In this document: piece by piece, positions 6,836-62,604 of the stretch
Numbering within the stretch: position 1 is the stretch's first letter
Layout of the letters: every line of letters starts with the position of its first letter
Origin: Undaria pinnatifida
Taxonomy: Eukaryota > Sar > Phaeophyceae > Laminariales > Alariaceae
Reading direction: 5' to 3'
DNA: 64,000 nt
NCBI GenBank assembly: GCA_012845835.1
Contig: JABAKD010000026.1
Span: forward strand, 4,789,699-4,853,698
Notes under the pieces: generated by a model
Database searches by the model: none
Seen by the model: the letters and a program-made list of their open reading frames with translations, nothing else
Told to the model about the DNA's origin: nothing
Program-made: the position numbers and the translations under genes

Positions 6836-6937
6836 TCACTTGAGGCGCATCTTGATGGTTCCCCTCGCCTTCTCGCCAGTGAGGTCCCACTCGTTGTCAA
6901 GCTTGTCGGAGTTCGCAATCACCTCGGCCACGTTCAC
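6836..6937 (-). CDS. Fusion gene exon 24: C2B last strands and stop
   Basis: Residues 1381-1413 and TGA. VNVAEVIANSDKLDNEWDLT then GTIKMRLK, the usual final C2 strand. Acceptor gatgcag, phase 0. As in exon 22, the ending AAG TGA overlaps a donor-like AA|gtgaga, so a further exon cannot be excluded; I find no convincing one in 1-6835. Two degenerate copies of the acceptor edge lie upstream (7078-7145, 7258-7325). Confidence 0.85.
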   Translation of the reverse strand: MNVAEVIANSDKLDNEWDLTGEKARGTIKMRLK

Positions 6938-9900
6938 CTGCATCATCAATCAGGCATCATCAATCAACCCATCGAACAAATATTGATCATGCATCGATCA
7001 ATTAACCAAAAGACATCATCAGCCAATCCATCAACAACCAACGCATGACCTACCAAGCCATCATCCGTGCATCAATATTCAATCCCGTTCGCTGTTACGC
7101 TTGTCAAGGTTTGCGATGACTGCGGCCACGTTCACCTGCATGCATCGATCGAGTATGCATCGTCCATAAATCCATCAACCAACTCATCATCAACCAACGC
7201 ATGGTCAATCACTCCATCAACCAATCAATCGCCAGTCAATGCACCATCAATCAATCCTATAAGCTACCAATCGTGTCAAAGATCACCATCACTTCGCCCA
7301 CGTTCGGCCGCATGCATCGATCCATCAACCAAAATGCACGAGCAACGAATCCAATATCAAACCAACGCAGCATCACTCACTTCATCAACCAACGCATAAT
7401 CAGTCATTACATGACCAATCAACGCACGGGTGCGCATTCCAGCACGGCTACAAAAAAAAATCCGGATTGAACGAGGAAAACTCCTTGCCGTGTGAGGTAG
7501 TCAATCAAGTATTGGGCTAGAAAAAGGCAAGAATAAAGGGAGAATAATCTCCGAATTATCAAAAATTTCAACATCATTTTTTTTTATCCGAGAAACGCGG
7601 ATCGTGCTTGTGAAACTCTTAACTCTGTGTCCAAGTAAAGCGCGGTAGTAGTACTACTAGTAGTAGCACGACAGAGGTAGCACTTTTTGGATATTTTTTT
7701 GTTTCTGAACTACACGGCTCCTTAACCCACCTCAACCAACCTTAACCCACCTTAACCCACCTTAACCCACCTTAACCAACCTTAACCCACCTTAACCAAC
7801 CTTAACCCACCTTAACCGCAAATCGTCGGCATGTCGGAATGTCGGAATGCCATTTTTTTATTTTTTTGTTGCAGTACTTTTTTTGTTTACCTAGGGCAGA
7901 AAGCTACAGTAGATCATCTCTTGATCGGGTTGCGCTTTCAGTTTTCTAAAAAAATCAGCTTTTGGGTTTATAGGGTTTTTATAGGGAAATACGAAGTACG
8001 GTATAGGGCTCCTCAAGTAATGAGCCCCAGAAAAAAAGAATAATGGTTGGTACACCCCTACCGTAGCATGTGTCAAGTCCGGTGTACCTTTTTTTGGCGA
8101 AACGCCTACTCGAGCCTGCTTCACAAAACATTCCTTAGGGGTCCCCCGCGGCCTTAATTACCGCGTTTGGAACTGAACCCACGCTCTTGGCAAGCGAACC
8201 ACTTGAGGTGAGCGTTTTTCTTTCGCAGTCTGAACTATGCACCGGCTTCGAGCCAGAGGCAACCGTGCCGAGAATATTTCCGAGAATCAATCCGAGAACA
8301 TTTCTGAGAACCACTCCAATAATCATTCCAAGAACGTTCCAAGAATATTTCCAAGAGAATCATTCGAAGAAGATTTCCTATTTTTTCTCCGAGAATCGTT
8401 CCAAGAAACGTACGAGGAATTTTTCGATAACAGTTCCAAGAAACTTCCGAGAATCATTCCCACAATCACTGTTTTTTTACCGTTTTCCGTCAGTTATCAT
8501 CAATAGAATACCTTGAAGGAGCCCAAGCACTTGTCGTTGCCGATGCTTTCCTTCTCCTTGAGCAGGACCTCGACGACGGCCGTTTTCGCTCCCTTTATGA
8601 GGAAGTGGAACACTTCGGGACACACGAAATCAGACATGTTCTCCACCACTTGTGTCTTGCGTTTCATGTTGCCACAGATGACCGACACGTAGCGGTCTCC
8701 TGGCTTCACCCCCCTATTTGGCGAACGTGGTATTCGTGTCGCACAGCAGCAGGCAAGTTTATATGGATGCGAGGATAAAAAGACAGCAGGCGGGGCGGAG
8801 GGGTGGGGGAGACGGGGGTTAGAAAACAGTGGCGTGTATGGAATTTTAAGCGAACAGGTCATACGTGTTGCACAGAAGCACACAAGTTGATATGGGCGCT
8901 AGGGAAAAAATCAAACAGCAGACCGCAGCAGGTGGGTTGGAGGGGTGGAAGAAATAGTGGCATGGAGCATAAACAAACATGTCATACAGCAGCAGTTGAT
9001 AAGGGTGCGAGGACAAAAGCAAAGAGTAGGAGGGGCGGACACATCATTTAATGCGGGGAGGGGGGGGGGGGGTACTCATTTGTTGCTTACCTTAGTCACT
9101 TAACCCTCGACCACGCATCCCTTTCGAGACGGAGCACCGTTCCTACTCCTAAACGAGACAAGTCCAACCTTTCCGTTAGGGGAGGGGGGATAGACAACAG
9201 TGACATGGAGCGTTCGCAACAAGATGATATCCTCGAACGCGGACAAAGAAATACGGTATCGTGATGGGGTCTCATTCGACAGAAGTCACCATATACCGTG
9301 AGTCTCGCGGTACAACACAACGCGCCAGCACAAGCACCGCACGCCGTGCAGCTACAGTAGACTCACTTGCACTCGATCCCCATGACGCTGATCACGCCCA
9401 GGCTAGTGTCCGAAGGGTTCAGCACTGCGGTCGGCTTAAGGGTGCTGGGGTCGGCGGCGGGGCCCGCGCGGGGCTTGCCCTCCTTGGCTAGCTTCATGGG
9501 TTGTCCGTCGGCCGAGAGGTTATGGTAGACGTCCGCGGCGACAGTGTCATCTGTGACTTCGCCAGCCACAACGTCTACGATAACGTCCTCGTCGGGTTGC
9601 TCCATGCGCTTGTCCCCGCTTGAGAGGGCCACGAACCTGCCAACAGCAGGCGAGGAGGAATAGGGCGGCGACAAGGGCAATAAGTAACAGCAGATATACT
9701 ACTTGTAGGAGCTACTGCAAGAGCTACCCCTGCCTGGAAATATGAGCAACATGTTATTTCCATGGCAATATCCAAATGTGTATTATATTTACGGAGATAG
9801 TGGTATTGACGTATTGACGTTCTACTACAACTACTGTAGAAGCTACTGCTGTAAGAGCTACCGGTATTGTACTAGGAGCTACTGCTGCAGTAGTTTCTGC

Positions 9901-12900
9901 AAAAGACACTGCTTTGCGCCCCTTGAGATGGGCACATACCTAACACAGCGAGAGTAGAAGAGGTGGGCGACTTCGGCAAGGCTTTTTTTTCGAGAAATAA
10001 CGAGCGTAACTGGGGGAAACACAGCCATTTTTTTTGTTAATGCTCATTAGATCGTTGCTAATGGCAAGACGATGTTTGACAAAAAAGTATAACTTTCGAA
10101 GATACCTGCCAACGTATTCCGGTACGGCTGTCTATGGGCCCGTTTGCATTTGTATATTGGGTGATTTCCAAACTTTCGGACTAAATGGATTCCTGGCGGC
10201 AATCTTGGGCAACATCTGCTTGTGAAAACTTTCAAGCAAAATCTTTCATTAGAAGCGGCCAGATTATGTGTGCTCCACGCACTTTAAATCAACCACAGCG
10301 TCGTGACCTCCGCACGTGGCGAACTCGTTACGGGCTCCAACCCACCCTTGGCGTACAGTGCTCACACTGCGGCCGGTGATGTGTGGAGCGTGCCGACCAT
10401 ATTTTATGTCCGGCGGCTGGCGTGTGGAAAACAGAGACAGCACTCTCGATCCTCTTCCAACGGGCAAGAAATAAAGTTTTGAGCGGGTTTGACGGAAGAC
10501 CACAGGACAATGCGGGCAACCTCTCGCGCCCTAGAGCATGGATCAACATGATGAGCTCTTCGGCGCTGTCTCCCACACTCATATGACCTTGTCCGAAATT
10601 TGTCGTAATGAAGAGGGCTGCTCGGGAGGCGCCTCTATCTCGAGATCGAAGGTCAATCGATGTTGTTGGACAGCATTGACCGAGGCTTGATGAAAACTGA
10701 CAAATTGGGCCGCTTGACAACAAAAATCGTTTTACGTCGTTTTTCGCCGACAGCGACGGTACGAAAGCATCTTCAGCAAAATACTCCCAACAAAAGTTTG
10801 GAGATCTGTTCGTTCAAGATCGCCTTGCCATTAGCAACAGTCTTATCCTGCAAAAAATGAAATAGGGGGAAATAGCAGAACGGATACGCTACCGCCCCCG
10901 CCATAAGAAAAGAGAGACTCACAAGAAACCTTACAAAACAAATACGGGGATTTTGTTCAAGATCGACATGTCATTAGCAATGGTTTTATCCCGCAAAAGT
11001 AATAAAATAGAGGAGAAATAGTAGAACGGATACGCTACCGGCCCCGTCATAAGAAAAGAGACTCACAAGAAACCTTACCAAAAAAAAATATTGTGCAAGT
11101 ACAATACGGGGATTTTGTTCAAGATCGCCATGCCATTAGCAACGGTTTTATCCCGCAAAGGTAATAAAATAGAGGAGAAATAGCAGAACAGATACGCTAC
11201 CGGACCCGTCATAAGCAAAGACACTCACTCAACTCACTCACACGGAACTGTGTAAAAAACAAGTACGGGGGTGCGAGAGATCCGTCCACTGTTATACGTA
11301 CCAGGTTATTCTGAAGTTTGCGCCTGTTGTACTGGTACCAGGTAGCACGCGCCACAATGGAGGAAGTAGCAGGTACTTTTCGTCTGAAACGAATGTTTTG
11401 TGATGAAATCAAAGGGCTCCTTGACCCAAAATCGTCGGGAAAAAAGAATAATAGGACATGTTCTTTGTTTTTTGCCTGATTGATTTTCATTCCATACCTA
11501 GCCTAGGCCATGGTGGGATGTTTCGTCTGGTAGCAGTTTCAAGTAGCTCCAAACTTAGGGTTAGGGTTAAGAAGGACATGTCTATCGTATAGCATGTCTA
11601 TCGTATAACGTATATCATGTTTATCGTCTATCGTATACGAAGTATCACGTCTATCGTCTATCGTATATCATGTCTATCGTATATCGTATCTTATGTCTAT
11701 CGCACAACGTATACCGTGTCCATCGTATACCATGTCTATCGTCCATCATGTCTATCGTATATTATGTCTATCGTATATCGTATCTCATGTCTATCGTATA
11801 ACGTACATCGTGTCTATCGTATATCGTGTCTATCGTCTATCATGCCTATCGTATATCGTACATCATGTCTATCGTATATCGAATCTCATGGCTATCGTAT
11901 AACGTATATCGTATATCGTATATCGTATACGAAGTATCATGTCTATCGTATTAACCTCCTGAAGTGAGGAACCTAAGAAAAAACGTGGGGCACCTCTACC
12001 GTGTACTGAAGCTTGCGCAGGATAAACCCTTTCTCAACACATCAGTATCCTATCCTATCCTAGTCTAGTCTAACTCCAAGTAGTTCGTTCCCCCGTCGGG
12101 ACTGCGGTGCTACAAGGCTTAATAAAAGGCTCAATGAAAGGCTTAATCGAGCCTACATGCCAGATAATATTACTCGCTAAATAATATTTCTGGCATATAG
12201 GTTTGTTTCTCATTAGAGGGTCACTACTGCATTAGCTTCCTCACGTGGCCTTGAGTGGAATGCTGCTTTTCTTGGACGTAAATTAGAATGCTGCTCTTCT
12301 TGCGTGTTGTGCGAGGTCCTTAAAACAAACTAAAATGAGAAATAAACGCGTATCCCTAGTAACCCCCAAGTACATACCCGGGTACCCCAAGGGTACATAC
12401 CCGGGTACCCCAAGAGTACATACCCGGGTACGCCAATGAGATATACCCGGGTACCCCAAGAGTACACACCCGGGTACCCCAAGAAGATATACCCGGGTAC
12501 CACAAGAGTAGATACCCGGGTGCCCCAAGAAGATATACCCGGGTACCCCAACAGTACATACCCGTGTACCCCAATAAGATATACCCGGGTATCCCCCAAG
12601 AATAGATTTTCTTTCATATCCCGCTGAACATGCCCTTGCAAGGTTTCCACTCACGTGGCCTTGAGTAGAATACTGCCCTTCTTGGTCTTGGAGAGGGGTA
12701 TGTTGTGCGAGGTCTCGATGTCCGTCTGCAGCACGGATAGGGGCAGCTCGCACACTCCGAGGCAGTCGTCGTCTCCCGGGCCGGCATCTCGGTCGTAAAC
12801 CGCGAACTCCATCACCTTTCACGATATAAGGCACAAAAAAAGACCAACACGTGAGGCTTATACTTCGAAGTATCCATCATCATGCCATTGATAACAATTC

Positions 12901-36900: not shown

Positions 36901-39900
36901 GGACTACCAATGCCCTGATGGACGAAAAAACAAGGGGATTGCTTAGTAGGGTATTTTTTTCATTTGCTTATTTTTTGCTCATCCCATCAAGCATTGTCGT
37001 CACAATCTTTGTTTGTCTTCCCGCCCTAAACGTAATTCAGACCCGGGTATATACCGGGGTACCACATCTGTGAGTGAGTGGTGATACTCGGGTATGTACC
37101 CGGGTACCGGCAGAGCGTATTATACCCTTCGTACTGAATATGACTTTAGAATAATCACTGTGGTGCATCGTTGACATATGCCAAAAGGGTGTTGTGGTTG
37201 TTTTTAATAACTTTTGAGCCGTTACTTAGTGCTGCGTTATCGGTGTAATTGTAGGGAGGCTGTTGTAAAAAAATTATACTTCGAAGTATGATAAAATGCC
37301 TGATGCATGAACGGTTCAAGGATTTGGTTAGTAGGGAATATATCTACGCACTCCAGAATACACGGGCACAACATCTTACGTATCGTATTGTTGGAGATAC
37401 TCCGATCGCGCGAATTACTGGGTGTGTGTCCTCATTAAGGATATACTAGGTAGGTCGGCGACTCCCCTCAGACCTAGCTGGTACCAGGGTCAACAGGGTG
37501 ATGTTAATCACCGTGTACCAGGTATGTATAACCCTATTTCCATTAAAAAAACATAGCTCAAGTCCAAAAAATAATATCCCACCTCGTGTAGAACCCCAAC
37601 CAGGCGAAGTACATCCCAATATAAGGTCCAAAGTAAGCGTTGACGGCAGCAGGAGCCTCCTTGTAGCCCGTCTTGGCTACACCGTCAAGCGCCGTTTTGT
37701 CGTGCAGAAGGGTCATCTGCGGAAACACACGTCAAAACATACCACATTCTGAGAATTCAGTACGCATTCGCTAACCTCTTTACATACGCATCCACGTCTA
37801 TGGGGACACACTGCTTGGAGTCAGTTCGATAGGGGGGGGGTGTTTGTGATTACCAAATTATCTTGGGTAAAAAAAAAGAAAAACATGAAAACGAAACACA
37901 AAACAGAAAACCTGATTCGCGGCCTCTCAAATCTTGGTGAACAACTGTTGGCTAATTGGGTTGGAGTTATCCAGACCAACCCCAGCCAATAAGTATCAAG
38001 GGGGAGGTGGACAAAAAGGGCCATTTCGGGCGTCTGTAGCTAATTTTTCGTGGGTTGGGTTGGCCTTGGGATATATATATAATATGACATTCGTCGGTTT
38101 CAAGATATGTTTTTTTTAAATGTTTTAAAGACGTCAGCTGTGAGTTCGATTTATTCAAGGGTCGATACTCATTCTTGCAAGATGCGTGAAACTCCGGTCG
38201 CACGTTGTTACTTTTTAAAGATATGTAAATCCTTTGCATCTTTGTCAATGGCGATTTCGTGTCCACAACATGAATGCTAATTCGCTTTCTCCTACCCAGC
38301 CAAATTGAGCATCCCGCAAACACGGTATTGTGCGTGTCGTTTTCTTCCAGCATCGCCCTACGTTTTCGACCCCTCCAAAACTGCGTGCACTAAACCACCA
38401 GTAAACCACCAGTAAACCACCTATCAGGCAATCAGCAAGCAACATGCACATACTTTACGCTCCCACGGAAAATCTGCAGCAGAGAGTAGTGACACAAAAG
38501 CGACATCGACGACCTACAGCAGACGCAGGCGCGACGGCAGCGTGCGCTCCAAACACAAAAACAGGGAAAAAAACACGTCGTGGATACAACAAAAAAACAA
38601 ACAAACTACAAGAAGGTACGAGGGTATTGACCCCTTGACCCCTGACAGCAGCAACGCCTTCATATCATTCTACACCGCGGTAAGGGGAATAATTTTCAGC
38701 GGGGTGTCGGCGGCGGCGCCCCCCAGCGTGCTCCTGAAAAAGCAAACCACAGGGCATGCACCGAAGCGGCTCTCACCTCTTTGTACTGCACGCCGGAGCG
38801 CATGATAACCTGGAGGGCATCGGCGCAAAGCTGAGATATCTCGCCTGACGTGTAATCCCCCCTTGGCTTGGTTGGCAGACCCCTTTCCACAGCCGACTTG
38901 ACCATGAGCTTAGGCCCCATACCCAGCACCATGGTCATCGTCGGAGGCACTACATCCCCATGCAGCATGGACTGACAAACGAACGTCAAGGGTTGGGGTC
39001 AGGGTGAGGGTTCTTGAGGATAGGGTTAGGGTCAGGGTCAGGGTTCTTGAGGGTTAGGGTTAGGGTTAGGGTGAGGGTTCTTGAGGATAGGGTTAGGGTT
39101 AGGGTGAGGGTTCTTGAGGGTTAGGGTTAGGGTTAGGGTGAGGGTTCTTGAGGATAGGGTTAGGGTTAGGGTGAGGGTTCTTGAGGGTTAGGGTCAGGGT
39201 TAGGGTGAGGGTTCTTGAGGATAGGGTTAGGGTTAGGGTGAGGGTTCTTGAGTCAGGGTTAGGGTTGGGGTTGGGGTTCAAAAAAGGCGGTCGAGGGGAA
39301 GGGAGGATGCGAGGGGTTTGTTCTAGACTTAGAGCTATAGGGTTGAAACTTAAAACACGTTGGTCGAGGGGACAACCAGACGCGCCCGTTTAGGGGTAAG
39401 GATATAACTACTACTCTAAATTACTCTCAATGAGGGTCCAGGTATAGCGACAAAAAACACGTCAAACGCGGCGTTAACACCCGTGTAAGGAAGCTAGAGC
39501 GTGCACCAGTGTGTCATCTTGATGCCTTCACATGCGGCGTACACCTCCCTACGCTTCGGACACGTCTTCTACCCCAGTACTCCACTAGTCGGGGCTGCTT
39601 CGTGTGGGCGATGCTGCAATTGAGTAATGTTGTTCGACATGTTTTCCAAGCACCACATCCTACCAGCACACCAGCAGACCATACCAAACCAAGCACCGCA
39701 CCGTACATAACATCACACTTTCACACCATTCCAAACAGCAGCATCACTCTATTAATACCGTAGTACTACAATGTACCATAACATTATCACGCCATATACC
39801 ATATACCATATTACCATATACCATAACCATATAACCTATAACCATAAACCATCAATTAGTTGACTAAGCGTCGATGGCTGATGCTATACCATTTTAATGA

Positions 39901-40786
39901 TCATACCAGCACACTGTACCGGAACACCATACCATACCATCACATCATACCATAACGTCATACAAGAAAAACGCAATCCACTCTCCTCTATGATCCATCA
40001 GCTGCACAGCAGTAGCTGTACACCACCAGTGCAGGTGCCACGACTGGCAATACACGCTCACAACATACACCACACCAAACTTTACCGCAAAGCAAACACA
40101 TGCAGGGCACAGGCTCACCACGTGCACAACGAAGCCAACGCATGACACAGTCTCACGAAGTGCATAACGATGCCTCCGGTTCTGAGGTGGGGCATGGCCG
40201 CATCACGGTGATCCTCAACGTTACCCGTAAAGCCCCAATATCGCTATCACATAATACCAACCAAGCGCCATCGCCACCCTGCCCGGTCTGCCGGTGCCGA
40301 GCGTGGGCTTTGGGGGGGTCCCAAGGGGCCACGCTTTTTCGTAGAAAACAAATCTATCGAGGGGGGGCGTTTGGCATCGCCTACCATACCATACCATACT
40401 ATACCAAATCAAGCACCGCACCATGCCATAACACCACCATCATATCACACCAAACCTAGCACCTCACCATGCCATCACACAATCACATCACACGAAATCA
40501 ACCAAGCACACCTCACCATGCCACCACACCATCACATCACACCAAGACAAGCATCACACCATGCCGTCACATTCTCACCAAGTGCACAATGAAGCCCCTG
40601 GTCCTCAAGTTCAGCATGGCCGCATCCGGATCTCCCTTAACCCCCATCATCACAATCTCCGGCGCCCCGAACACCGGCCCACCGGCCACCGTTCTCGGCT
40701 TCGGAGGCTCAGCAGCAGCAGCAGCAGCAACGGCAGCAGTAGCAGGGGCAGCAGCGGTAGCATCCCCTCCCGCAGCAACACTTCCC

Positions 40787-40832
<46 letters not shown>

Positions 40833-41322
40833 CAGGTGTAGCGGTGGCGGTAGTGTTCGCAGCAGGCTTCCCCGTCGATAGGGACGGGAGGGTATCCGTT
40901 GTGCCTGCAGGTGCCCTAGCTGCTCCTACGGCCGCTGCTGCCGCTGCCGATGCTGCTGATGCTGCTGCTGCTACTGCTGCTGCTGCCCCAGCAGGTGCTG
41001 CCGCTGGAGCTTGACGGGGAGGAACCGGGGGGGGCATCGGCTTTACCGCATGTTCAGCTCCCCCCCGGGAGATTCCTTTCCCCGACTGGCCGGCGCTGTC
41101 GGGGCTGTCGGGGCCGAACAAGCTGTGGGGCATGGAGTGGATGAAGCTCGACTTCGCGGATTTGCGAGACTTGACCGACGCGGGAGACTTGGTGTCATCT
41201 TCATCGCTGCTAGAGCTGGAATTGCTGCGCTTGAAGGGGTTGTGTATCTTTTTGGAAATCCGCGAAGAGAAACTCTTTTTTTTTGGCAATCCTCCTGATT
41301 CGGCGCCGCTGGTATCGGACAT
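6836..41322 (-). CDS. TMEM16 (anoctamin)-SMP-C2-C2 fusion protein; 24-exon gene (whole span)
   Basis: Joining 24 exons on the minus strand gives 4242 coding bases: 1413 residues plus TGA. Seen: all junctions keep phase, and each exon matches the next piece of a known fold. Residues 1-248 are low complexity. About 300-800 is an anoctamin domain with YFAWLGFYT, FQFVNSY, the EYLE and NNxxExxxD calcium-site motifs and a tenth membrane segment. About 835-870 is a hydrophobic hairpin. About 905-1098 is an SMP (TULIP-type lipid-transfer) domain. About 1105-1225 is C2A, and about 1305-1410 is C2B. Family knowledge: TMEM16 proteins are Ca2+-gated scramblases or channels; SMP-C2 proteins (E-Syt/tricalbin) tether ER to plasma membrane and move glycerolipids. 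Inference: a contact-site protein that transfers and scrambles lipids. The alternative is two adjacent genes split near exon 12/13, but phase continuity and a good acceptor argue against that. The start chosen is ATG at 41322 (G at -3); an in-frame ATG lies 21 bases upstream. Confidence 0.85.
6938..7400. repeat. Intron 23: two degenerate copies of exon 24's acceptor edge in CATCAATCAACC repeats
   Basis: On the minus strand, 7078-7145 and 7258-7325 repeat the acceptor plus first about 45 bases of exon 24 (tgcatgcag|GTGAACGTGG in the nearer copy). Both lie upstream of the true exon. The spacers are CATCAATCAACC-type low complexity. Confidence 0.85.
7718..7820. repeat. (CCTTAACCCA)n tandem repeat
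   Basis: About ten 10-base units with CCTTAACCAA variants. Confidence 0.95.
8265..8470. repeat. (TTCCGAGAATCA)n-type degenerate repeat in intron 23
   Basis: Degenerate units of 12-18 bases such as CCGAGAATCATTCC. The open frames across it are repeat artefacts. Confidence 0.8.
8512..8713 (-). CDS. Fusion gene exon 23: C2B core
   Basis: Residues to 1380. PGDRYVSVICGNMKRKTQVV, then VEVLLKEKESIGNDKCLGSF. The C2 fold is clear, but loop 3 reads KEKE instead of D-x-D and loop 1 lacks its first Asp, so Ca2+ binding is unlikely. Acceptor caaatag, donor gtattc, phase 0. Tandem duplicates of the upstream intron follow at 8848-9042. Confidence 0.9.
8718..9042. repeat. Three tandem copies of an intron 22 segment abutting exon 23
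   Basis: Units at 8718-8812, 8848-8950 and 8968-9042 share the order gcgaacrtgtcatacgtgt, cacagcagc, agttgatatgggtgcgagg, ggaggggtgg. The first abuts the acceptor of exon 23. Confidence 0.85.
9367..9636 (-). CDS. Fusion gene exon 22: linker and C2B first strand
   Basis: About residues 1223-1312. It finishes C2A (TFVALSSG), gives an acidic/Pro-Ala linker and opens C2B with LGVISVMGIECK. The donor AA|gtgagt overlaps an in-frame AAG TGA, so retention of intron 22 would end the protein at once, without C2B. Acceptor ttggcag. Phase 2 on both sides. Confidence 0.85.
9638..10040. other. Intron 21, part: short CTACTGCTG-type repeats
   Basis: Contains clustered gagctactgc/agctactgctg units at 9700-9900 and no coding block. 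Confidence 0.5.
10045..10846 (+). mobile_element. About 800-bp inverted-repeat element, copy A
   Basis: Both ends carry an inverted repeat of about 80 bases: GTTGCTAATGGCAAG at 10050 and its complement (CTTGCCATTAGCAAC) near 10830, continuing inward with related sequence (cgaagatacctgcc... and ...gaaagcatcttcagc). A second copy in opposite orientation at 25945-26750 matches along the interior, e.g. TTGGCGTACAGTGCTCA. No transposase is recognised; the interior frames are short. Probably a non-autonomous DNA transposon. Target duplications were not resolved. Confidence 0.75.
10814..11235. repeat. Three tandem copies of the 3' end of element A plus flank
   Basis: Units of about 150 bases each begin with the element's terminal CAAGATCGCCATGCCATTAGCAAC-like sequence and run through cagaacggatacgctaccgg, gtcataagaaaagag and caagaaaccttac. 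They look like tandem duplication after insertion. Confidence 0.88.
11575..11955. repeat. (GTCTATCGTATATCAT)n minisatellite
   Basis: About 25 imperfect units of the type ATGTCTATCGTATATCGT. The tyrosine/arginine-rich frames here are artefacts. Confidence 0.95.
12240..12328 (-). repeat. Broken copy of exon 21's 3' edge with donor
   Basis: On the minus strand it repeats ACCTCGCACAACA...AAGAAG..GCAT..CTCAAGGCCAC|gtgagg, matching the last about 60 bases of exon 21, and lies downstream in intron 21. Frame is not kept throughout. Confidence 0.85.
12358..12600. repeat. About 23-bp minisatellite (ACCCGGGTACCCCAAGAGTACAT)n
   Basis: About eleven units, each with a palindromic CCCGGGTACCC core. It lies between the copy and the real donor edge of exon 21. 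Confidence 0.95.
12655..12815 (-). CDS. Fusion gene exon 21: C2A calcium loop 3
   Basis: Residues 1170-1222. VMEFAVYDRDAGPGDDDCLG supplies the D-x-D pair (Asp1177, Asp1179) of calcium loop 3, then the last C2 strand GSILLKA. Acceptor gtgaaag, donor gtgagt, phase 2. Three upstream copies of its acceptor edge and one downstream copy of its donor edge are visible in the flanking introns. Confidence 0.95.
12816..13445 (-). repeat. Intron 20: three upstream copies of exon 21's acceptor edge
   Basis: On the minus strand, segments around 13360-13440, 13200-13285 and 12995-13080 each repeat the branch/acceptor region (gccttatatcatcaaag-like) and the first about 30 bases of exon 21 (GTGATGGAGTTCACGGTGTACGACCG-like). 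Spacing is about 160-220 bases. The copies decay into AT-rich intron sequence. Confidence 0.88.
13446..14815. other. Intron 20 middle: no coding block recognised
   Basis: A plus-strand frame of 314 codons (14050-14994) runs through here, but it ends in the CCGGTACC minisatellite, and its composition (Ser/Pro/Arg) looks non-coding. No family recognised. Poly-C at 14512-14524. Confidence 0.4.
14820..15178. repeat. CCGGTACCCGA..GTTCGGTACG minisatellite, array 1
   Basis: Units of about 55 bases built from CAATACCGGTACCCG, CCTCGGTAAGTTCGGTACGGCCT. The same family occurs at 58470-58870 and 59475-60050. Confidence 0.9.
15400..15441 (-). repeat. Copy of exon 20's 3' edge with a consensus-like donor
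   Basis: Minus strand reads ..TTTCTGGTCTACGAGCCCTCCGTCGAG|gtgagc, matching FxLVYExSVE at the end of exon 20, 170 bases downstream in intron 20. An in-frame TAG immediately precedes it. Confidence 0.88.
15608..15738 (-). CDS. Fusion gene exon 20: C2A core
   Basis: Residues to 1169. KSDPYVKVKLG with Asp1129, then TDVIKRTLNPRFNATFDLLV, the standard C2 order K-x-x-x-I-x-x-TLNPxWNExF. Acceptor tgagcag, donor gtgtgt, phase 0. The donor is weak; a copy of this edge at 15400-15441 carries a better one (gtgagc) but has an in-frame TAG just before it. Confidence 0.95.
15787..15912 (-). repeat. Three short copies of exon 20's acceptor edge
   Basis: AAGGTTGCCTGTTCAAA-type units at about 15790, 15845 and 15892 repeat, in complement, the tttgagcag|GCAA acceptor of exon 20, all upstream of it. 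Confidence 0.6.
16288..16386. repeat. 10-bp tandem repeat (CAACATTTGC)n
   Basis: About ten perfect units. A related but unexpanded flank (CCACGCATCCCTTTCGAGAC) occurs at 9110-9180. Confidence 0.97.
16620..16870 (+). repeat. Dispersed repeat family D (GCAGATCGTACGGCTCCCACC), copy 1
   Basis: Shares with copies at 18200-18380, 19400-19680 and 21480-21730 the order gcagatcgtacggctcccacc, gtaacatgagct, cagatcttcccgaaa, tctagatcatcaag. Preceded by ATCATATAGA-type repeats. Origin unknown. Confidence 0.8.
16957..17045 (-). repeat. Dispersed repeat family B copy
   Basis: Inverted copy of the CAGCTGTGAG...ACTCATCTTTGCAAGCTGCG family, ending 45 bases from the donor of exon 19. Confidence 0.85.
17090..17171 (-). 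CDS. Fusion gene exon 19: C2A first strands
   Basis: Residues 1099-1126 (phase 1 end). GVVQLTIVGCDDLRAADLGG is the first C2 strand and calcium loop 1, with Asp1123. Acceptor atccag, donor gtgagg. Intron 18 (17172-20199) is 3 kb and holds the TTACAGTACACC minisatellite, a SINE-like repeat and two or more other dispersed repeats. Confidence 0.92.
17230..17527. repeat. (TTACAGTACACCTTGG)n / (TTACAGTACACG)n minisatellite
   Basis: About 22 units of two interleaved types, 16 and 12 bases, in intron 18. Confidence 0.97.
17650..17890 (-). mobile_element. SINE-like repeat family C, copy 1
   Basis: About 230 bases, found five times in the window. On the minus strand it runs from about GACTGACTCCCGATTTTACTT to GACTTGATTATGCGAGTTAATGTGAG and ends in (CAA)n, like the microsatellite tail of a SINE. 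Conserved internal part: CTCCAGAGTGACTGGAGCC. No promoter boxes proven. Confidence 0.75.
18010..18098 (+). repeat. Dispersed repeat family B copy
   Basis: gacgtcagctgtgagttcga, then ggtcgatactcatctttgcg, then gatcgcccgttttt: the core form of the family. Confidence 0.88.
18200..18380 (+). repeat. Dispersed repeat family D, copy 2
   Basis: Diverged copy: gcagaccgtgcgactcccaccc, agatcatcaagtagagatag, tctgtcggacgtgcgaaa (the last also in copy 1). Confidence 0.7.
18381..19395. other. Intron 18 middle: AT-rich, nothing recognised
   Basis: Several poly-A runs and no conserved coding block. Confidence 0.5.
19398..19680 (+). repeat. Dispersed repeat family D, copy 3, with (TAGATAATC)n
   Basis: Starts with five TAGATAATC units (19398-19445), then the family core gcagatcgtacggctcccacc and gatcatcaagcggg. 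Confidence 0.82.
20079..20140 (-). repeat. Copy of exon 18's donor-side sequence
   Basis: GCGATctcATagaaCcATCCTC..GCGTGCCAGCAAAGCCACaACTCAC duplicates 20145-20200, which contains the donor of exon 18; it lies downstream in intron 18. Confidence 0.85.
20200..20412 (-). CDS. Fusion gene exon 18: SMP domain end
   Basis: Residues 1028-1098. FPCFGAVLLTFMEKPFIDF and DIIHNAIKDMLVFPKKMPVP match the last SMP strands and the closing V/WP-x-x-x-x-VP motif. Acceptor gcaacag, donor gtgagt, phase 0. A duplicate of the donor side lies at 20079-20140. Confidence 0.95.
20515..20960. repeat. (TATTGATCGTCAATAGG)n minisatellite in intron 17
   Basis: About 25 units of 14-18 bases with higher-order duplication: the block at 20690-20790 is repeated at 20800-20900. 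Confidence 0.95.
20965..21062 (+). repeat. Dispersed repeat family B copy
   Basis: acgtcacctgtgagttcgac, ggatcgatactcatctttgc, aagctgcgtg, cggccgctcgt. Confidence 0.85.
21136..21321 (-). CDS. Fusion gene exon 17: SMP domain
   Basis: Residues 966-1027. Beta strands of the lipid-binding barrel: VVIDIDIRWAGNAEFVVEAG (D-x-D-x-x-WAG-x-x-x-x, an SMP motif) and RMRVELAPLV. Acceptor gtgcag, donor gtgaga, phase 0. A GGGACGAGGGTAATGA minisatellite begins 8 bases outside the acceptor. Confidence 0.95.
21330..21428. repeat. 16-bp minisatellite (GGGACGAGGGTAATGA)n against exon 17's acceptor
   Basis: About six units alternating GTAATGA and GTGATGA. It begins within the polypyrimidine tract, which is therefore made of repeat. 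Confidence 0.95.
21480..21730 (+). repeat. Dispersed repeat family D, copy 4
   Basis: agatcacgtagataatct, aggatcctgtatctgc, agctcccacccggtaacatg, catacagatcttctc. Intron 16. Confidence 0.75.
22230..22364 (-). CDS. Fusion gene exon 16: SMP domain
   Basis: Residues 921-965. PILDSYKPPGFSALGFRKVSLGTIPPK follows the SMP pattern: P-x-L...YRPPG...I-x-F-x-x-x-x-LGxxPP. Acceptor gccag, donor gtaacc, phase 0. Confidence 0.95.
22440..22870. repeat. Intron 15 short repeats: GTATACCATGTAGC and TGCTGTCGTCAT
   Basis: Four units of the first at 22449-22500, five 12-base units of the second at 22708-22760, and TGTTGTTATCATCGC between them. Confidence 0.88.
23033..23122 (-). CDS. Fusion gene exon 15: SMP domain start
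   Basis: Residues 891-920. Contains LPPWYTDSEVERVDWMNKIL. The E-x-V-x-W-x-N-x-x-L block is the hallmark opening of SMP domains (E-Syt, tricalbin). Acceptor gggacag, donor gtacga, phase 0. Intron 15 (22365-23032) is filled by TGCTGTCGTCAT and related short repeats. Confidence 0.94.
23540..23607 (-). repeat. Diverged copy of exon 14's 3' half with donor
   Basis: Minus strand gives KNLPHKALALGVVKGTQ|gtgtgg against KDLSDKALALGIVKDPQ|gtgtgc in the real exon. Frame, length and donor are kept. It lies 120 bases downstream in intron 14. An AG (ggtag) precedes it within a G-rich run. Either a decaying duplicate or a usable alternative exon end. Confidence 0.85.
23727..23844 (-). CDS. Fusion gene exon 14: second half of hydrophobic hairpin
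   Basis: Completes residues to 890. A hydrophobic run (AFWVLPTAFVFVSYL) then a charged stretch with KALALGIVKDPQ. Acceptor tttcgcag, donor gtgtgc, phase 0. A second, diverged copy of the 3' half with donor occurs 120 bp downstream at 23540-23607. Confidence 0.88.
24120..24265. repeat. (GAT)n microsatellite with GGAT interruptions
   Basis: Long GATGATGAT array in intron 13. Confidence 0.97.
24648..24722 (-). repeat. Copy of exon 13's 3' edge with dead donor
   Basis: gactttccatgcaacgagcaaggagatcatgg...aggcaggtgccgcac repeats 25240-25300. The copied donor reads GCATG|gaaagt, so the GT is lost. It lies downstream of exon 13 in intron 13. Confidence 0.9.
24735..24975 (-). mobile_element. SINE-like repeat family C, copy 2
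   Basis: Matches copy 1 from TTGTTGTTCTCACATTAACTC through GGAAAAACA to AAGTGAAATCG, more diverged at the far end. Confidence 0.75.
25045..25140 (-). repeat. Dispersed repeat family B copy
   Basis: Inverted: cgcagcttgcaaagatgagt, cccgaaatttgtcgaactca, cggctgacgtccttg. Confidence 0.88.
25247..25398 (-). CDS. Fusion gene exon 13: linker and first half of hydrophobic hairpin
   Basis: Residues 801-851 (last codon split, phase 2). A Gly/Ser/Thr-rich linker, then VWHLPLAMIPFLIAW. Acceptor tctcaag after a pyrimidine-rich tract, donor gtaagt (perfect consensus). In E-Syt-like proteins a hydrophobic hairpin sits just before the SMP domain, and this segment occupies that place. An internal Met (ERPGM) could start a separate SMP protein if the fusion were wrong. 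Confidence 0.85.
25586..25648 (-). CDS. Fusion gene exon 12: linker
   Basis: A 63-base exon, residues 780-800, reading WPINPYSLMFVVNFSLRGLKE. Acceptor cctgcag, donor gtaggc, phase 0. It joins the anoctamin tail to exon 13. If this donor were skipped the frame would run on to a stop at 25448, which would give an anoctamin-only protein. An inverted degenerate copy of this exon's 5' edge and the preceding intron lies at 33424-33600. Confidence 0.75.
25945..26752 (-). mobile_element. About 800-bp inverted-repeat element, copy B
   Basis: Inverted relative to copy A at 10045-10846, with the same terminal GTTGCTAATGGCAAG motif at 25952 and its complement near 26738. The interiors align over most of their length, e.g. 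GACGGAAAACCACAGGATAA against gacggaagaccacaggacaa. Sits in intron 11. Confidence 0.75.
26922..27086 (-). CDS. Fusion gene exon 11: anoctamin TM10 and cytosolic tail
   Basis: Residues 725-779. A membrane helix (VVLVVVAEHLLFLL) precedes LIDKVPRVVREAQ, equivalent to the anoctamin ending IPDVP-x-x-V. Acceptor ggtcag, donor gtgagt, phase 0. Degenerate copies of the 5' edge of this exon occur upstream at 27876-27935 and 28420-28490. Confidence 0.93.
27165..27785. repeat. 24-bp minisatellite (AATTGATACTGACATCACATCAAC)n in intron 10
   Basis: About 25 units. It starts about 80 bases from the acceptor of exon 11. The Val/Ser/Ile/Asp frames on the minus strand are artefacts. Confidence 0.97.
27876..27935 (-). 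repeat. Copy 1 of exon 11's acceptor edge
   Basis: Minus strand: gctgtcag|GTGGTCTTAATGGTGGTGGCAGAACGCC, reading VVLMVVAER against VVLVVVAEH in exon 11; 0.8 kb upstream. Confidence 0.85.
28420..28490 (-). repeat. Copy 2 of exon 11's acceptor edge
   Basis: Minus strand reads VVVVVAEHVLFL over the same register, 1.35 kb upstream of exon 11. A further fragment (caaaaacagcacgtgttc) is at 28627-28652. Confidence 0.8.
29228..29282. repeat. (CACTAAT)n microsatellite
   Basis: Seven to eight 7-base units of CACTAAT. Confidence 0.95.
29538..29699 (-). CDS. Fusion gene exon 10: anoctamin TM9
   Basis: Residues 671-724. IGAWQLCLEMIGVVACMTNL corresponds to the family IG-x-W-x-x-IL segment, then a short lumenal/extracellular loop, shorter than in animal TMEM16A. 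Acceptor aatgcag, which lies directly against a CGGTTTCATATTCGGC minisatellite filling intron 9. Donor gtaagg, phase 0. Confidence 0.93.
29700..30500. repeat. CGGTTTCATATTCGGCA minisatellite filling intron 9
   Basis: Irregular units of about 20 bases (GACGGTTTCATATTCGGCATT) begin immediately outside the acceptor of exon 10 and run almost to exon 9. The middle (29990-30180) is unrelated. Confidence 0.9.
30561..30689 (-). CDS. Fusion gene exon 9: anoctamin TM7-TM8
   Basis: Residues 628-670. QFGYIAMFFVVFPLAPLFA followed by ILNNVWEFKVDQTKL. Glu655 and Asp659 match the E730/D734 calcium ligands of mouse TMEM16A (recalled numbering). Ends RRPQ, as in the family. Acceptor gaaacag, donor gtaagc, phase 0. 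Confidence 0.96.
30905..30988. repeat. (GTTACAGTAGG)n repeat
   Basis: Seven to eight units of 11-12 bases directly before the MITE-like element. Confidence 0.9.
30988..31172 (+). mobile_element. GGCGGT-rich MITE-like element, copy 1
   Basis: About 185 bases bounded by GTCCCCCGGTAAGGCGG and CCGCCTTGTTGGGGGACCCC, with multiple internal ATAAGGCGG motifs in both orientations. A second copy in opposite orientation at 45181-45381 aligns end to end. Terminal inverted repeats and no coding capacity point to a MITE. Intron 8. Confidence 0.75.
31895..32035. repeat. About 38-bp repeat (CAGAATTTTCTGAGAACTTTCGAA)
   Basis: Three to four units just downstream of exon 8. Confidence 0.85.
32059..32172 (-). 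CDS. Fusion gene exon 8: anoctamin TM6-TM7 loop; GC donor
   Basis: Residues 590-627, an acidic loop ending ESEYLEM. Glu623 and Glu626 match the paired glutamates (E-x-x-E) of the TM7 calcium site. To keep frame with exon 9 (next residues VLQFGY, exactly the family order) the donor must be ATG|gcgagt, a GC-AG intron. The nearby GT (gtgaca) would break the frame. Intron 8 spans 30690-32058. Confidence 0.88.
32205..32350 (-). repeat. Dispersed repeat family E, copy 1
   Basis: gcacgtcgggtttgcaccgg, ccaggcagaca, cttgcacca, gcgaa..cgccgtgaggt also occur at 57255-57415. The minus-strand frames share R-x-FGA-x-x-VCL-x-G-x-NPTC, so the family may derive from a coding element. Intron 7. Confidence 0.7.
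32600..32788 (-). CDS. Fusion gene exon 7: anoctamin TM5-TM6 with calcium-site Glu
   Basis: Residues 527-589. Begins MFAFQFVNSYCALLYVGFW, the most conserved anoctamin block. Helix 6 includes five consecutive Met from an ATG run. KQFISQFVEIYQP aligns with the TM6 calcium-site motif of TMEM16A: Glu571 sits at the E654 position, whereas the Asn (N650) position is Ser567. Acceptor ttcgcag, donor gtgagg, phase 0. Confidence 0.95.
32937..33026 (-). repeat. Broken copy of exon 6's 3' edge with donor
   Basis: gaaggaggcgttattcgttcaccttgatga...gtggggtgctcctcgaagtc repeats 33650-33735, i.e. the last part of exon 6 and its donor, 0.65 kb downstream in intron 6, with internal losses. Confidence 0.88.
33424..33600 (+). 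repeat. Inverted copy of exon 12's acceptor edge and upstream intron
   Basis: Plus strand matches the minus strand of 25635-25795: cgtctgcctt, accg, gagcgcgcag, cggtacgagta, catgctgcacctg, cgtacgagag, cggacaccaattt, cagcggccgatta. It therefore spans intron 11 sequence, the acceptor and the first bases of exon 12, but is inverted and sits in intron 6. Confidence 0.88.
33673..33831 (-). CDS. Fusion gene exon 6: anoctamin TM4-TM5
   Basis: Residues 474-526. It holds a membrane helix (YYPLLLYSVVPIVASFAYDF) followed by FEEHPTDVRKKNALIIK, the counterpart of the family motif wE-x-h-x-T...L-x-x-K. Acceptor ttacag, donor gtgaac, phase 0. Intron 6 (32789-33672) contains a broken copy of the 3' edge of this exon (32937-33026) and an inverted copy of the exon 12 edge (33424-33600). 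Confidence 0.95.
34104..34229 (-). CDS. Fusion gene exon 5: anoctamin TM3 region
   Basis: Residues 432-473, starting EGEFSPSPAGK, which matches the anoctamin F-x-GE...P-x-TGK segment, then a membrane helix (VPIILAAIYVVIRVMLYCIW). Acceptor cttgaag abuts an extended (CAT/CAC)n tract, so the polypyrimidine tract is poor. Donor gtaaga, phase 0. Confidence 0.88.
34243..34520. repeat. (CAT/CAC)n tract against exon 5's acceptor
   Basis: About 280 bases of CAT/CAC/ACC triplets. The plus-strand His-rich frame (126 codons) and minus-strand Met/Val-rich frame are low-complexity artefacts. Confidence 0.95.
35105..35345 (+). repeat. Dispersed repeat family B, long form
   Basis: aatacactccagctgtgaga, ctcatctttgcaagctgtg, tccgatcgcgcgtatta, tcctcattaaggatataggt, cggcgactcccctt, agggtcaaca, tgtgcgcggaaactata: the long form also present at 56700-57010, 60045-60300 and 61115-61335. 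Confidence 0.9.
35346..36100. repeat. G-rich low-complexity DNA with a partial family B copy
   Basis: gggggg runs and two similar halves (cgcgtggtgctaggtctagg at 35600 and cgcgcggtgctgggtctagg at 35955), with a family B fragment at 35850-35945. A matching stretch is at 57175-57245. Confidence 0.75.
36101..36660. other. Intron 4 end: CAACCATCAACAACC-rich, nothing recognised
   Basis: Low-complexity ACCAACCA/CAATCAAC sequence up to the donor of exon 4. Confidence 0.5.
36695..36914 (-). CDS. Fusion gene exon 4: anoctamin TM1-TM2
   Basis: Completes residues to 431. Two hydrophobic stretches (VVPSIGGLFLFL and LLLPMFCVLIMVWTGMFLDLW) are followed by WRRRNSEIAFRWGVDG, the anoctamin cytosolic loop motif (typically WKRxxxxLxxxWG). 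Donor gtgcgt, phase 0. Intron 4 (34230-36694) is 2.5 kb and contains the His-codon-like CAT/CAC tract, two dispersed repeats and G-rich low-complexity DNA. Confidence 0.95.
37365..37545 (+). repeat. Dispersed repeat family B, partial
   Basis: agatactccgatcgcgcgaa, gtgtgtcctcattaaggata, cggcgactcccct, agggtcaacagggtgatgtt. Confidence 0.85.
37583..37716 (-). CDS. Fusion gene exon 3: anoctamin LHDK and TM1 approach
   Basis: Residues 314-358. It contains LLHDK and the diagnostic YFGPYIGMYFAWLGFYT stretch, the classic anoctamin signature entering the first membrane helix. Acceptor tttccgcag, donor gtggga with phase 2, completed by the first base of exon 4 to give Arg. Intron 3 (36915-37582) includes a partial dispersed repeat at 37365-37545. 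Confidence 0.95.
38120..38225 (+). repeat. Dispersed repeat family B copy
   Basis: gacgtcagctgtgagttcga, gggtcgatactcattcttgc, aagatgcgtg, ccggtcgcacgtt. Intron 2. Confidence 0.85.
38777..38971 (-). CDS. Fusion gene exon 2: anoctamin N-terminal cytosolic domain
   Basis: Residues 249-313, acceptor ttgtcag, donor gtgaga, phase 0 on both sides. The segment reading ISQLCADALQVIMRSG just before the LHDK motif of exon 3 sits where the cytosolic dimerisation domain of anoctamins ends (family knowledge). Sequence similarity is weak before that point, as usual for this domain. Intron 2 (37717-38776) holds one dispersed-repeat copy (38120-38225) and otherwise nothing recognised. Confidence 0.85.
38995..39285 (+). 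repeat. Interstitial telomere-like TTAGGG array in intron 1
   Basis: TTAGGGTTAGGG runs alternate with GTGAGGGTTCTTGAGGATAGGG in a higher-order unit of about 55 bases. TTAGGG is the telomere repeat of many stramenopiles and animals. The Asn-Pro frames are artefacts. Confidence 0.93.
39286..40145. other. Intron 1 middle: ACCATACCATA-rich low complexity
   Basis: CCATATACCATA and CACACCA repeats at 39650-40100; no coding block. Confidence 0.6.
40146..40220 (-). repeat. Broken copy of exon 1's 3' edge with donor
   Basis: Minus strand reads DAAMPHLRTGGIVMHF against DAAMLNLRTRGFIVHL at the end of exon 1, followed by gtgaga as in the original. It lies 0.4 kb downstream in intron 1. Confidence 0.9.
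40579..41322 (-). CDS. Fusion gene exon 1: low-complexity N-terminus
   Basis: Residues 1-248. It begins MSDTSGAESGG, followed by a Lys/Ser-rich stretch (KSRKSAKSS), a proline patch (PMPPPVPP) and then about 100 residues of almost pure alanine from (GCN)n. It ends GFIVHL before the donor gtgaga (phase 0). The Ser/Lys part could be a phospho-regulated or membrane-binding tail. The poly-Ala part comes from a CAG/CTG-type repeat and may vary in length. The frame stays open upstream to 41529, so the true start is uncertain. Intron 1 spans 38972-40578. Confidence 0.75.
40697..41000. repeat. CAG/GCT triplet repeat inside exon 1 (poly-Ala)
   Basis: Runs of GCAGCAGCA (longest near 40793-40830) are translated in the alanine frame of exon 1. 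Likely length-variable. Confidence 0.95.
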
Positions 41323-52614: not shown

Positions 52615-52651
52615 GATCAGGCTGCTTGCTCGAACAATAAGCCCGTTAACG

Positions 52652-53020
52652 TGTTCAATTAGCGCTGATATGCGATGGATGGATAAGCTCCCAACAGCCA
52701 CACTAGGCTGTGAGCGAGGCACTGCAACACGCAGTGTGTAGAAGATAGTTTAAGATGTCTTTATTATGTCGGCCCGGAAAGGGATAGACGAATGCAGAGG
52801 GAAAAGTGGAGTGGGTCATGTGGGCCAACTCTCCACAGCCCAGTAACAACCGCTCGTAGTCGAATACCTAAACCTCCTCGCATAGTGCCTACTCGTACAT
52901 ATCCGTGGGACTGCTCGTGGGTGATACCACGAGACGATCCCTGTAACTTACCTCCGTGACACAACGTATGTAACCGTAACTTATTGCTAGGCTGTTCGTT
53001 GAGACAAGCTATATCGAACA
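52652..53020 (-). repeat. Copia 5' LTR
   Basis: 369 bases, almost identical to 47325-47693. The next inner bases on the minus strand (cgttaacgggcttattgttc) are the expected primer-binding region; I do not recognise the tRNA. Confidence 0.96.
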
Positions 53021-61868: not shown

Positions 61869-62604
61869 AGTACAGCACACCCTGCCAGCCGGCAACCTGG
61901 GCACGGTGCAAGTACGCCCGAGGTCTCTTCCGATACAGTCGGGGTTGCGGAGCAAGATGAGGGAGTTTCAGGCCGAGGGGTGATCCTTATCGCAAGCTAG
62001 CACGGCAAAAACTCAAAAATATGTCTAAGAAAAGTTGAGGAGCCTTCTCCGCCGAGAAGCAGCTTCAATTTTGTGCATGTACTTATATTGCATCTAGACG
62101 GCGGCCCATCTCAAGGCTGAGTGCCAGCGGTCCTTGGAAAAATCCAAATTGGTTGTTGTTGGCTGTGTTACGCGTGATTCAAAGAACAGTTGAGAGGTAA
62201 CTATGTACTTCGTATAAATATACTTCCCCCCGTCGGCTGCTCCCCGGCCAGGGTGGCGCTCGGGCCTGAGGCTCCCCCAACGCGTGCCAGAGCCCCTGAG
62301 GGTGTGTGGCATCGACCGTACTCGTGCTCTGAACTAGCGCTCGGGCATGGCCGAGCCGGCGGTGAAAGCCAGCGACAAGGCAACAAAGCTCCTCACGGAT
62401 TTTTTCAACGCAGCAGTCTTGCCTGCGGACGCAGTGTCGTGTCACCGCCGCGGAAAGCGTGGGGCTTGTATCAAACGGAGAAGAGAGCTCGAATTCATGC
62501 GAGTAGGCGCCAAAGTCGGGAAGGAAATGGACGTGGAGCGTCGGGATTACTCCCCCCTTCACGTTGGCATTTAGGCAAGAACCGTTAGGCATGAACCGGG
62601 CTGG

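What the first reader, a model, noticed from the sequence alone, without database searches (positions are those of the whole stretch)
6836..41322. One polypeptide joins a TMEM16 scramblase-type domain to an SMP-C2-C2 lipid-transfer module
Seen: 24 minus-strand exons join in phase into 1413 codons whose order is anoctamin, hydrophobic hairpin, SMP, C2, C2. Established: TMEM16 proteins move lipids between leaflets; SMP proteins of the E-Syt/tricalbin class carry lipids between membranes at contact sites; bulk lipid-transfer proteins are thought to need a scramblase at each end (as proposed for VPS13-XK and ATG2-ATG9). Inference: here the two activities are covalently fused, giving a self-contained Ca2+-controlled lipid transfer and equilibration machine. 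I know of no described protein with this order, but I could not search.
Basis: partly seen in the sequence, partly recalled or inferred. Interest (0 to 1): 0.93.

Follow-up and report, generated by a model that had tools for sequence, protein, structure and literature searches.

The report
Scramblase fused to lipid-transfer protein
A brown-alga-like genome carries one gene whose protein joins a flip-flop machine for membrane lipids (TMEM16) to a lipid carrier that works between membranes (SMP-C2), two activities normally found in separate proteins, and the same joined protein exists in distant relatives.

Summary
I rebuilt the gene as 23 minus-strand exons (41322..6836, 1392 aa, phases consistent; 21 GT-AG introns, one GC-AG), not 24 exons and 1413 codons. 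Pfam finds a near-complete anoctamin domain (E 3e-97), a complete SMP domain (5e-18) and two C2 domains. Joining of two neighbouring genes is very unlikely: 7 of 120 listed homologues carry anoctamin + SMP + C2 in one chain, at 69% or 36-39% identity. An algal protein recovers 22 of 23 exons in order. The TM10-to-hairpin linker is 73-75 residues in 8 of 8 full-length fusions, and an Ectocarpus model reads through the junction. The five acidic Ca2+ positions of TMEM16 are acidic in 9 of 9 rows, those of C2A in 8 of 8. Seven other anoctamin loci of this genome show no SMP exon within 20 kb downstream. Best reading: an ER-resident, Ca2+-regulated scramblase covalently coupled to an E-Syt-like lipid shuttle, a single-chain counterpart of yeast Ist2-Osh6. 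Activity, localisation and transcripts are untested. Eight literature searches listed no description.

The parts
40579..41322 (-). Exon 1 (aa 1-248): start ATG, disordered Ser/Lys- and Ala/Pro-rich N-terminus, then start of the cytosolic domain
   Evidence: 3' part matched by P0003 (40707-40579); a second in-frame ATG lies 21 bases upstream (seen)
38777..38971 (-). Exon 2 (aa 249-313): cytosolic N-terminal domain of the anoctamin half
37583..37716 (-). Exon 3 (aa 314-357): start of anoctamin Pfam match (residue 338)
36695..36914 (-). Exon 4 (aa 358-431), anoctamin
34104..34229 (-). Exon 5 (aa 432-473), anoctamin
33673..33831 (-). Exon 6 (aa 474-526), anoctamin
32600..32788 (-). Exon 7 (aa 527-589), anoctamin; holds the TM6 acidic position E571
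32059..32172 (-). Exon 8 (aa 590-627), anoctamin; holds TM7 acidic positions E623 and E626; followed by a GC-AG intron (donor gcgagt)
   Evidence: the GC donor was chosen because it gives YLEM|VLQFGY, matching the homologues' YLEM and QF(G/L)
30561..30689 (-). Exon 9 (aa 628-670), anoctamin; holds TM8 acidic positions E655 and D659
29538..29699 (-). Exon 10 (aa 671-724), anoctamin
26922..27086 (-). Exon 11 (aa 725-779): last anoctamin TM and charged helix up to the junction ...ASGLP
   Evidence: 9 of the 10 residues before the splice are the same in P0001 and P0003
25247..25398 (-). Exon 12 (aa 780-829): junction exon, linker and first arm of the hydrophobic hairpin
   Evidence: found by P0001 at 25404-25246, E 4e-11; Ectocarpus P0003 reads from exon 11 into this exon
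23727..23844 (-). Exon 13 (aa 830-869): second arm of the hairpin
   Evidence: (hydropathy maxima within 821-849)
23033..23122 (-). Exon 14 (aa 870-899): start of the SMP domain (residue 887)
22230..22364 (-). Exon 15 (aa 900-944), SMP
21136..21321 (-). Exon 16 (aa 945-1006), SMP
20200..20412 (-). Exon 17 (aa 1007-1077), SMP end (residue 1070)
17090..17171 (-). Exon 18 (aa 1078-1104), C2A start; acidic position D1102
15608..15738 (-). Exon 19 (aa 1105-1148), C2A; acidic position D1108
12655..12815 (-). Exon 20 (aa 1149-1201), C2A; acidic positions D1156, D1158, D1165
9367..9636 (-). Exon 21 (aa 1202-1291), linker between C2A and C2B
8512..8713 (-). Exon 22 (aa 1292-1359), C2B (degenerate, no acidic cluster by eye)
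   Evidence: Pfam C2 E 4.8e-6 on a piece of exons 21-23
6836..6937 (-). Exon 23 (aa 1360-1392) with stop TGA
26991..37644 (-). Span of the anoctamin (TMEM16) domain, aa 338-756 (coordinates worked out by hand from the exon table)
   Evidence: Pfam PF04547 1-456 of 460, E 3.1e-97
20221..23071 (-). Span of the SMP lipid-binding domain, aa 887-1070 (coordinates worked out by hand from the exon table)
   Evidence: Pfam PF17047 2-179 of 180, E 5.1e-18; E-Syt2 4p42 E 7e-18 over this piece

Best explanation
One gene encodes one polypeptide: a TMEM16K/ANO10-like scramblase domain, a conserved 73-75 residue linker, an E-Syt-type membrane hairpin, an SMP lipid-binding module and two C2 domains. Shown: the single open chain, the domains, the conserved acidic Ca2+ positions and the conservation of the fusion across divergent lineages. 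Inferred: the protein sits in the ER; the C2 domains (C2A by Ca2+) bind an opposed membrane, most likely the plasma membrane; the SMP module shuttles glycerophospholipids across the gap; and the TMEM16 half, opened by the same Ca2+ signal, re-equilibrates the two leaflets of the donor membrane so that transfer is not limited by depletion of one leaflet. TMEM16s and SMP domains both work as two-fold dimers and both ends that meet here are cytosolic (recalled, from no call), so one homodimer could hold both machines in fixed 1:1 ratio.
For: Exon chain in phase. Domains in order. Seven further proteins with all three domains, 1293-1418 aa, 36-69% identical to the window protein by alignment (Pfam rechecked on 5 of the 7). 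22 of 23 exons in order with one algal protein. Linker length 73-75 aa in 8 of 8 full-length fusions. TMEM16 Ca2+ positions E or D in 9 of 9 rows at all five positions; C2A positions D in 8 of 8 at four, and D in 7 and E in 1 at the fifth. SMP halves of the 8 fusions form one clade at 100/99 against 24 non-fused SMP proteins that I picked from 106. Best PDB sequence matches are ANO10 (E 1e-44) and E-Syt2 (E 1e-36), and an AF2 model of relative P0003 has human TMEM16K as its six best Foldseek rows. Ist2 scrambling sustains Osh6 transfer in reconstitution (PMC12617493, abstract and one section).
Against: No activity, localisation or RNA evidence for any fusion. TMEM16 sequence alone does not separate scramblases from channels. 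The position of TMEM16A N650 (number recalled) is S in the window protein and G in the other 8 rows. C2B has no acidic cluster. On the anoctamin tree the fusion label needs 3 changes, and 0% of bootstrap trees need one, because P0003, Phaeothamnion P0121 and Tribonema P0122, which lack an SMP domain as deposited, lie among the fusions; P0003 is marked partial and reads past the junction, P0121 stops in the linker and the match of P0122 stops at profile position 368 of 460, so all three may be cut models, but loss of the SMP half is not excluded. The clade that holds these 11 rows has 94/92 support, not starred. In the SMP tree the fused rows fill only 42% of the kept columns. Coupling of scrambling to transfer in cells is unproven even for Ist2-Osh6 (PMC13286939, passages; and PMC12617493 saw no effect of deleting the Ist2 TM domain on cellular PS levels or distribution).
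Confidence: 0.68

Rival explanations
1. The fusion is real, but the TMEM16 half is a Ca2+-gated ion channel or merely a multi-pass ER anchor and Ca2+ sensor, so the protein is an E-Syt with an unusual anchor and does not couple scrambling to transfer.
For: TMEM16 sequence does not by itself distinguish channel from scramblase; the chloride channel ANO1 also matches, and scores above ANO6 and the fungal scramblases (104 against 101 and 84 bits).
Against: The best match by sequence, and for relative P0003 by fold, is ANO10/TMEM16K (156 bits), called an ER lipid scramblase in the abstract start of PMC7335067. The acidic Ca2+ positions are kept over deep divergence, which a plain anchor would not need. 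A Dictyostelium TMEM16 is a scramblase (title of PMC5812556), as are the fungal proteins so named in the PDB.
Confidence: 0.2
2. One locus makes two proteins: an anoctamin and an SMP-C2-C2 protein, through an internal promoter or alternative ends, with or without the fused form. Exon 12 holds an in-frame ATG (MSFASLAAGG), and exon 11 read past its donor stays open for 27 more codons.
For: The in-frame ATG in exon 12 and the open frame past 26922. E-Syts normally start just before the hairpin (recalled). The other full-length fusions also have a Met somewhere in this linker.
Against: The Met is not at one column in the homologues. The exon 11-12 junction is read through in P0003 and P0001 and the linker length is 73-75 aa in 8 of 8. 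The seven fusions are single-chain models.
Confidence: 0.08
3. Two neighbouring genes were wrongly joined by the reader and by gene predictors.
For: Whether any of the deposited fusions rests on cDNA is not shown by the calls; they may all be computational models.
Against: The same join in at least three divergent groups (window/P0001; P0002; P0004-P0008), with alignable linker of equal length. The donor and acceptor at 26922/25398 keep the frame.
Confidence: 0.03

Closest known systems
Ist2-Osh6/7 of budding yeast (TMEM16-like ER scramblase that recruits an ORP lipid exchanger)
   Same: ER TMEM16 protein combined with a lipid-transfer activity at ER-PM contacts; scrambling sustains transfer in vitro (PMC12617493).
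   Different: In yeast the transfer protein binds non-covalently to a long disordered tail and is an ORD exchanger; here it is in the same chain, follows a 73-75 residue linker and is an SMP-C2-C2 module.
Extended synaptotagmins / tricalbins / plant SYTs
   Same: Hairpin, SMP, C2 order; E-Syt2 SMP-C2A-C2B matched at E 1e-36; C2A acidic positions present.
   Different: Known members begin with the hairpin (tricalbins: passage); here a TMEM16 domain comes before it. Only two C2 domains, the second degenerate.
TMEM16K/ANO10 (ER lipid scramblase)
   Same: Best sequence match (E 1e-44) and best fold match of relative P0003; same acidic Ca2+ positions in the printed alignment.
   Different: TMEM16K has no lipid-transfer domain (recalled).
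Bridge-type lipid-transfer proteins with partner scramblases (ATG2 with ATG9/TMEM41B/VMP1; VPS13 with XK)
   Same: Same logic of coupling bulk transfer to leaflet equilibration (ATG2: passage in PMC13286939; VPS13-XK recalled).
   Different: Separate proteins, a bridge and not a shuttle, and scramblases at both ends.

Membership tests
TMEM16 / anoctamin | Full-length anoctamin domain | tested here: met
   PF04547 positions 1-456 of 460, E 3.1e-97
TMEM16 / anoctamin | Acidic Ca2+ ligands on TM6, TM7 and TM8 (recalled as E654, E702, E705, E734, D738 of TMEM16A) | tested here: met
   E571, E623, E626, E655, D659; acidic in 9 of 9 rows. The recalled Asn on TM6 is not kept (S or G)
TMEM16 / anoctamin | TMEM16 fold | tested here: met
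   Tested on relative P0003, not on the window protein: AF2 mean pLDDT 69.3; six best Foldseek rows TMEM16K, TM-score by target 0.67-0.70
TMEM16 / anoctamin | Ca2+-dependent scrambling or channel activity | not testable with these tools
   needs protein
E-Syt / tricalbin / SYT | Complete SMP domain | tested here: met
   PF17047 2-179 of 180, E 5.1e-18; 4p42 E 7e-18
E-Syt / tricalbin / SYT | Hydrophobic hairpin directly before SMP | tested here: met
   Hydropathy maxima within 821-849, SMP from 887. Weaker in relatives: in P0004 and P0006 no 19-residue stretch there passes the 1.5 threshold
E-Syt / tricalbin / SYT | Hairpin is the N-terminal and only membrane anchor | tested here: not met
   A whole anoctamin domain precedes it, so it is not filed as an E-Syt
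E-Syt / tricalbin / SYT | Two or more C2 domains, at least one with Ca2+ ligands | tested here: met
   C2 family E 1.1e-27 for the whole protein, two stretches at E <= 1; C2B E 4.8e-6 as a piece; five Asp in C2A. In P0002 the C2B piece is below the family cut-off (18.2 of 22 bits)
E-Syt / tricalbin / SYT | Lipid binding and transfer | not testable with these tools
   needs protein
Ist2-type scramblase plus lipid-transfer system | Transfer protein recruited by a motif in a long disordered C-terminal tail | tested here: not met
   Transfer module is in the same chain after a 73-75 aa linker

The most novel reading that the evidence does not exclude
A single-chain, Ca2+-gated scramblase-shuttle: a dimer that transfers lipids from the ER to another membrane while re-equilibrating the ER leaflets, inherited since before the split of brown algae from the lineages of P0002 and P0004-P0008. 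It would show that evolution fixed scrambling and transfer as one obligate 1:1 machine, which is direct evolutionary evidence for the coupling so far argued from protein partnerships.
Probability: 0.55. Interest if true: 0.9.

Novelty: new variant of a known kind. Interest (0 to 1): 0.8.

Why it matters
Whether scramblase and lipid transfer are coupled in cells is stated as open for Ist2-Osh6 in a 2026 review (PMC13286939, passages). A natural covalent fusion, kept with a near-constant linker length and the acidic Ca2+ positions over deep divergence, argues that the coupling has functional value. It also gives a one-protein system in which either half could be switched off by point mutation.

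Tried and rejected
Two-gene reading: rejected on the conservation of the junction in other lineages. The GT four bases downstream of the GC donor of exon 8 was rejected by hand because it breaks the frame into exon 9. Viral and prokaryotic contig scans with the fusion alignment gave no relative. A profile search with alignment A1 found only P0001 and P0003 at E <= 1e-30, probably because the search words came from the low-complexity N-terminus, so it says nothing about distribution. In one search only the 7988 candidates sharing most words were scored and 120 of 146 hits were listed, so the seven fusions are a lower bound. Rfam (gathering threshold) and tRNA scans of the window: nothing. Literature: eight searches aimed at the fusion or its families and one on Ist2 listed no title or abstract start that describes an anoctamin-SMP protein; five papers were opened, in part; subscription journals and preprints are not held. 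[quoted passage not shown] this genome has 26 anoctamin matches outside the window, in about seven loci. The full fusion was not modelled: the full-length fusions exceed the 1200-residue limit and the spliced window protein is not letter-for-letter in the DNA. Stand-alone SMP genes of this genome: not determined, the search did not complete.

Full report
What is there. I read the minus strand of most of the locus and joined exons by splice sites and frame. The result is 23 exons from 41322 to 6836, 4179 coding bases, 1392 aa, with a single terminal stop and consistent phases at every junction. Twenty-one of the 22 introns are GT-AG; intron 8 is GC-AG, chosen because it gives YLEM|VLQFGY, which fits the homologues.

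Domains. Pfam matches, in order: anoctamin 338-756 (E 3.1e-97, profile 1-456 of 460), SMP_LBD 887-1070 (E 5.1e-18, 2-179 of 180), C2 with best stretch 1087-1187 (family E 1.1e-27 for the whole protein, two stretches); the second C2 on its own scores E 4.8e-6. A hydrophobic hairpin lies at about 821-849. In the PDB the best sequence matches are ANO10 (E 1e-44, query residues 302-755) and E-Syt2 (E 1e-36, 885-1220).

One gene or two. One search reported 146 proteins and listed 120. Of these 120, 7 carry anoctamin, SMP and C2 domains in one chain (P0001, P0002, P0004-P0008; 1293-1418 aa), 7 are anoctamin-only and 106 carry SMP-type and/or C2 domains without an anoctamin domain. By alignment to the window protein, P0001 is 69% identical and the other six 36-39%. 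Among the 128 fetched proteins plus the window's, 23 matched a profile of the anoctamin half, 114 one of the SMP half and 8 both, the window protein included. tblastn of P0001 against the window recovers 22 of 23 exons in order; part of exon 1 is recovered with P0003. The Ectocarpus sp. protein P0003 is marked partial and stops near the end of the linker, but it reads across the exon 11-12 junction (...RRRASGLPESERS...). The stretch from the last TM to the hairpin is 73-75 residues in 8 of 8 full-length fusions. Together these make two mis-joined genes very unlikely. RNA evidence was not available.

Phylogeny. SMP halves of the 8 fusions form one clade (100/99) against 24 other SMP proteins that I chose from the 106 non-fused matches. 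Two cautions: the fused rows fill 42% of the kept columns, and none of the 24 is known to me to be a stramenopile protein, so a single origin is indicated, not proved. In the anoctamin tree of all 23 matches, the 8 fusions, P0003, Phaeothamnion P0121 and Tribonema P0122 group together (94/92, not starred), but the fusions alone are not one side of a branch: the label needs 3 changes. P0121 stops within the linker region and its longest contig is 7.0 kb; the anoctamin match of P0122 stops at profile position 368 of 460. Both may be cut models; loss of the SMP half is the alternative. The source organisms of P0001, P0002 and P0004-P0008 are not named.

Own genome. The window is part of an unnamed 511 Mb genome in 68 contigs. 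By closeness to Ectocarpus (P0003, 72% identity) I take it for a brown alga (inference). Of 30 anoctamin matches, 4 are in the window and 26 in about seven other places. I took 20 kb downstream of each of the seven and scanned six frames with the SMP-C2A profile: no match at E < 0.05 in any of the 14 stretches, nor in L001-L008. In the window the same scan found the frames of exons 14 to 20, seven of seven, at E 1.4e-6 or better, and weakly (E 0.033) the frame of exon 22, the C2B exon. A very diverged SMP, or one further off, would be missed. Stand-alone SMP genes of this genome could not be counted, as the search did not complete.

Function. Five acidic residues that bind Ca2+ in TMEM16 proteins (positions recalled from TMEM16A) are acidic in 9 of 9 rows: E571, E623, E626, E655, D659 in the window protein; the TM6 Asn is not kept (S here, G in the other 8). 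In C2A the acidic positions are D in 8 of 8 at four positions, and D in 7 and E in 1 at the fifth. AF2 on P0003, a relative under the size limit that reaches past the junction, gave mean pLDDT 69.3 (231 of 818 residues under 50, mostly residues 1-212) and human TMEM16K as its six best Foldseek rows. From this I infer an ER protein in which Ca2+ both docks the C2A domain on the facing membrane and opens the scramblase, so that SMP transfer draws on both leaflets. The idea is supported by the yeast case: Ist2 scrambling sustained Osh6 transfer of phosphatidylserine between liposomes, although the same paper reports no effect of removing the Ist2 TM domain on cellular PS levels or distribution (PMC12617493, section read), and a review by authors of that line of work states that coupling has not been shown in cells (PMC13286939, passages).

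Novelty. The searches listed no description of an anoctamin-SMP fusion; the listed papers were seen as titles and abstract starts, and five papers were opened in part. The library lacks most subscription papers and all preprints. Both families are known; their covalent union, with a TMEM16 domain in front of an E-Syt hairpin, is to my knowledge a new architecture. I file it as a new variant of a known kind. Main uncertainty: function is inferred from homology alone.

Noticed in passing
window 47785-52749 (-): Body of a Ty1/copia-type LTR retrotransposon: gag (PF14223), zinc knuckle (seen by eye), Pol beta-barrel (PF22936), integrase core (PF00665) and reverse transcriptase (PF07727, E 1e-44), in frames interrupted by stops.
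   Followed up: partly
window 62575-63999 (+): Open frames that by eye resemble a LINE-type endonuclease/reverse transcriptase; Pfam gave no match at E <= 0.01 for the three frames scanned.
   Followed up: partly
window 38989-39279: Telomere-like AGGGTT array inside intron 1 of the fusion gene.
   Followed up: no
window 27228-27779: 24-base tandem array of 23 copies in intron 10, next to the last anoctamin exon.
   Followed up: no
window 40710-40986: GCT/CAG trinucleotide runs in exon 1 encode Ala-rich tracts; P0001 and P0003 are Ala/Pro-rich there too.
   Followed up: partly
G000 C2, C13, C22, C38 (three places), C57: About seven further anoctamin loci in this genome, although a 2018 phylogeny reports single TMEM16 genes in brown algae; two of them on C38 lie 37 kb apart and cover the same profile part.
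   Followed up: partly
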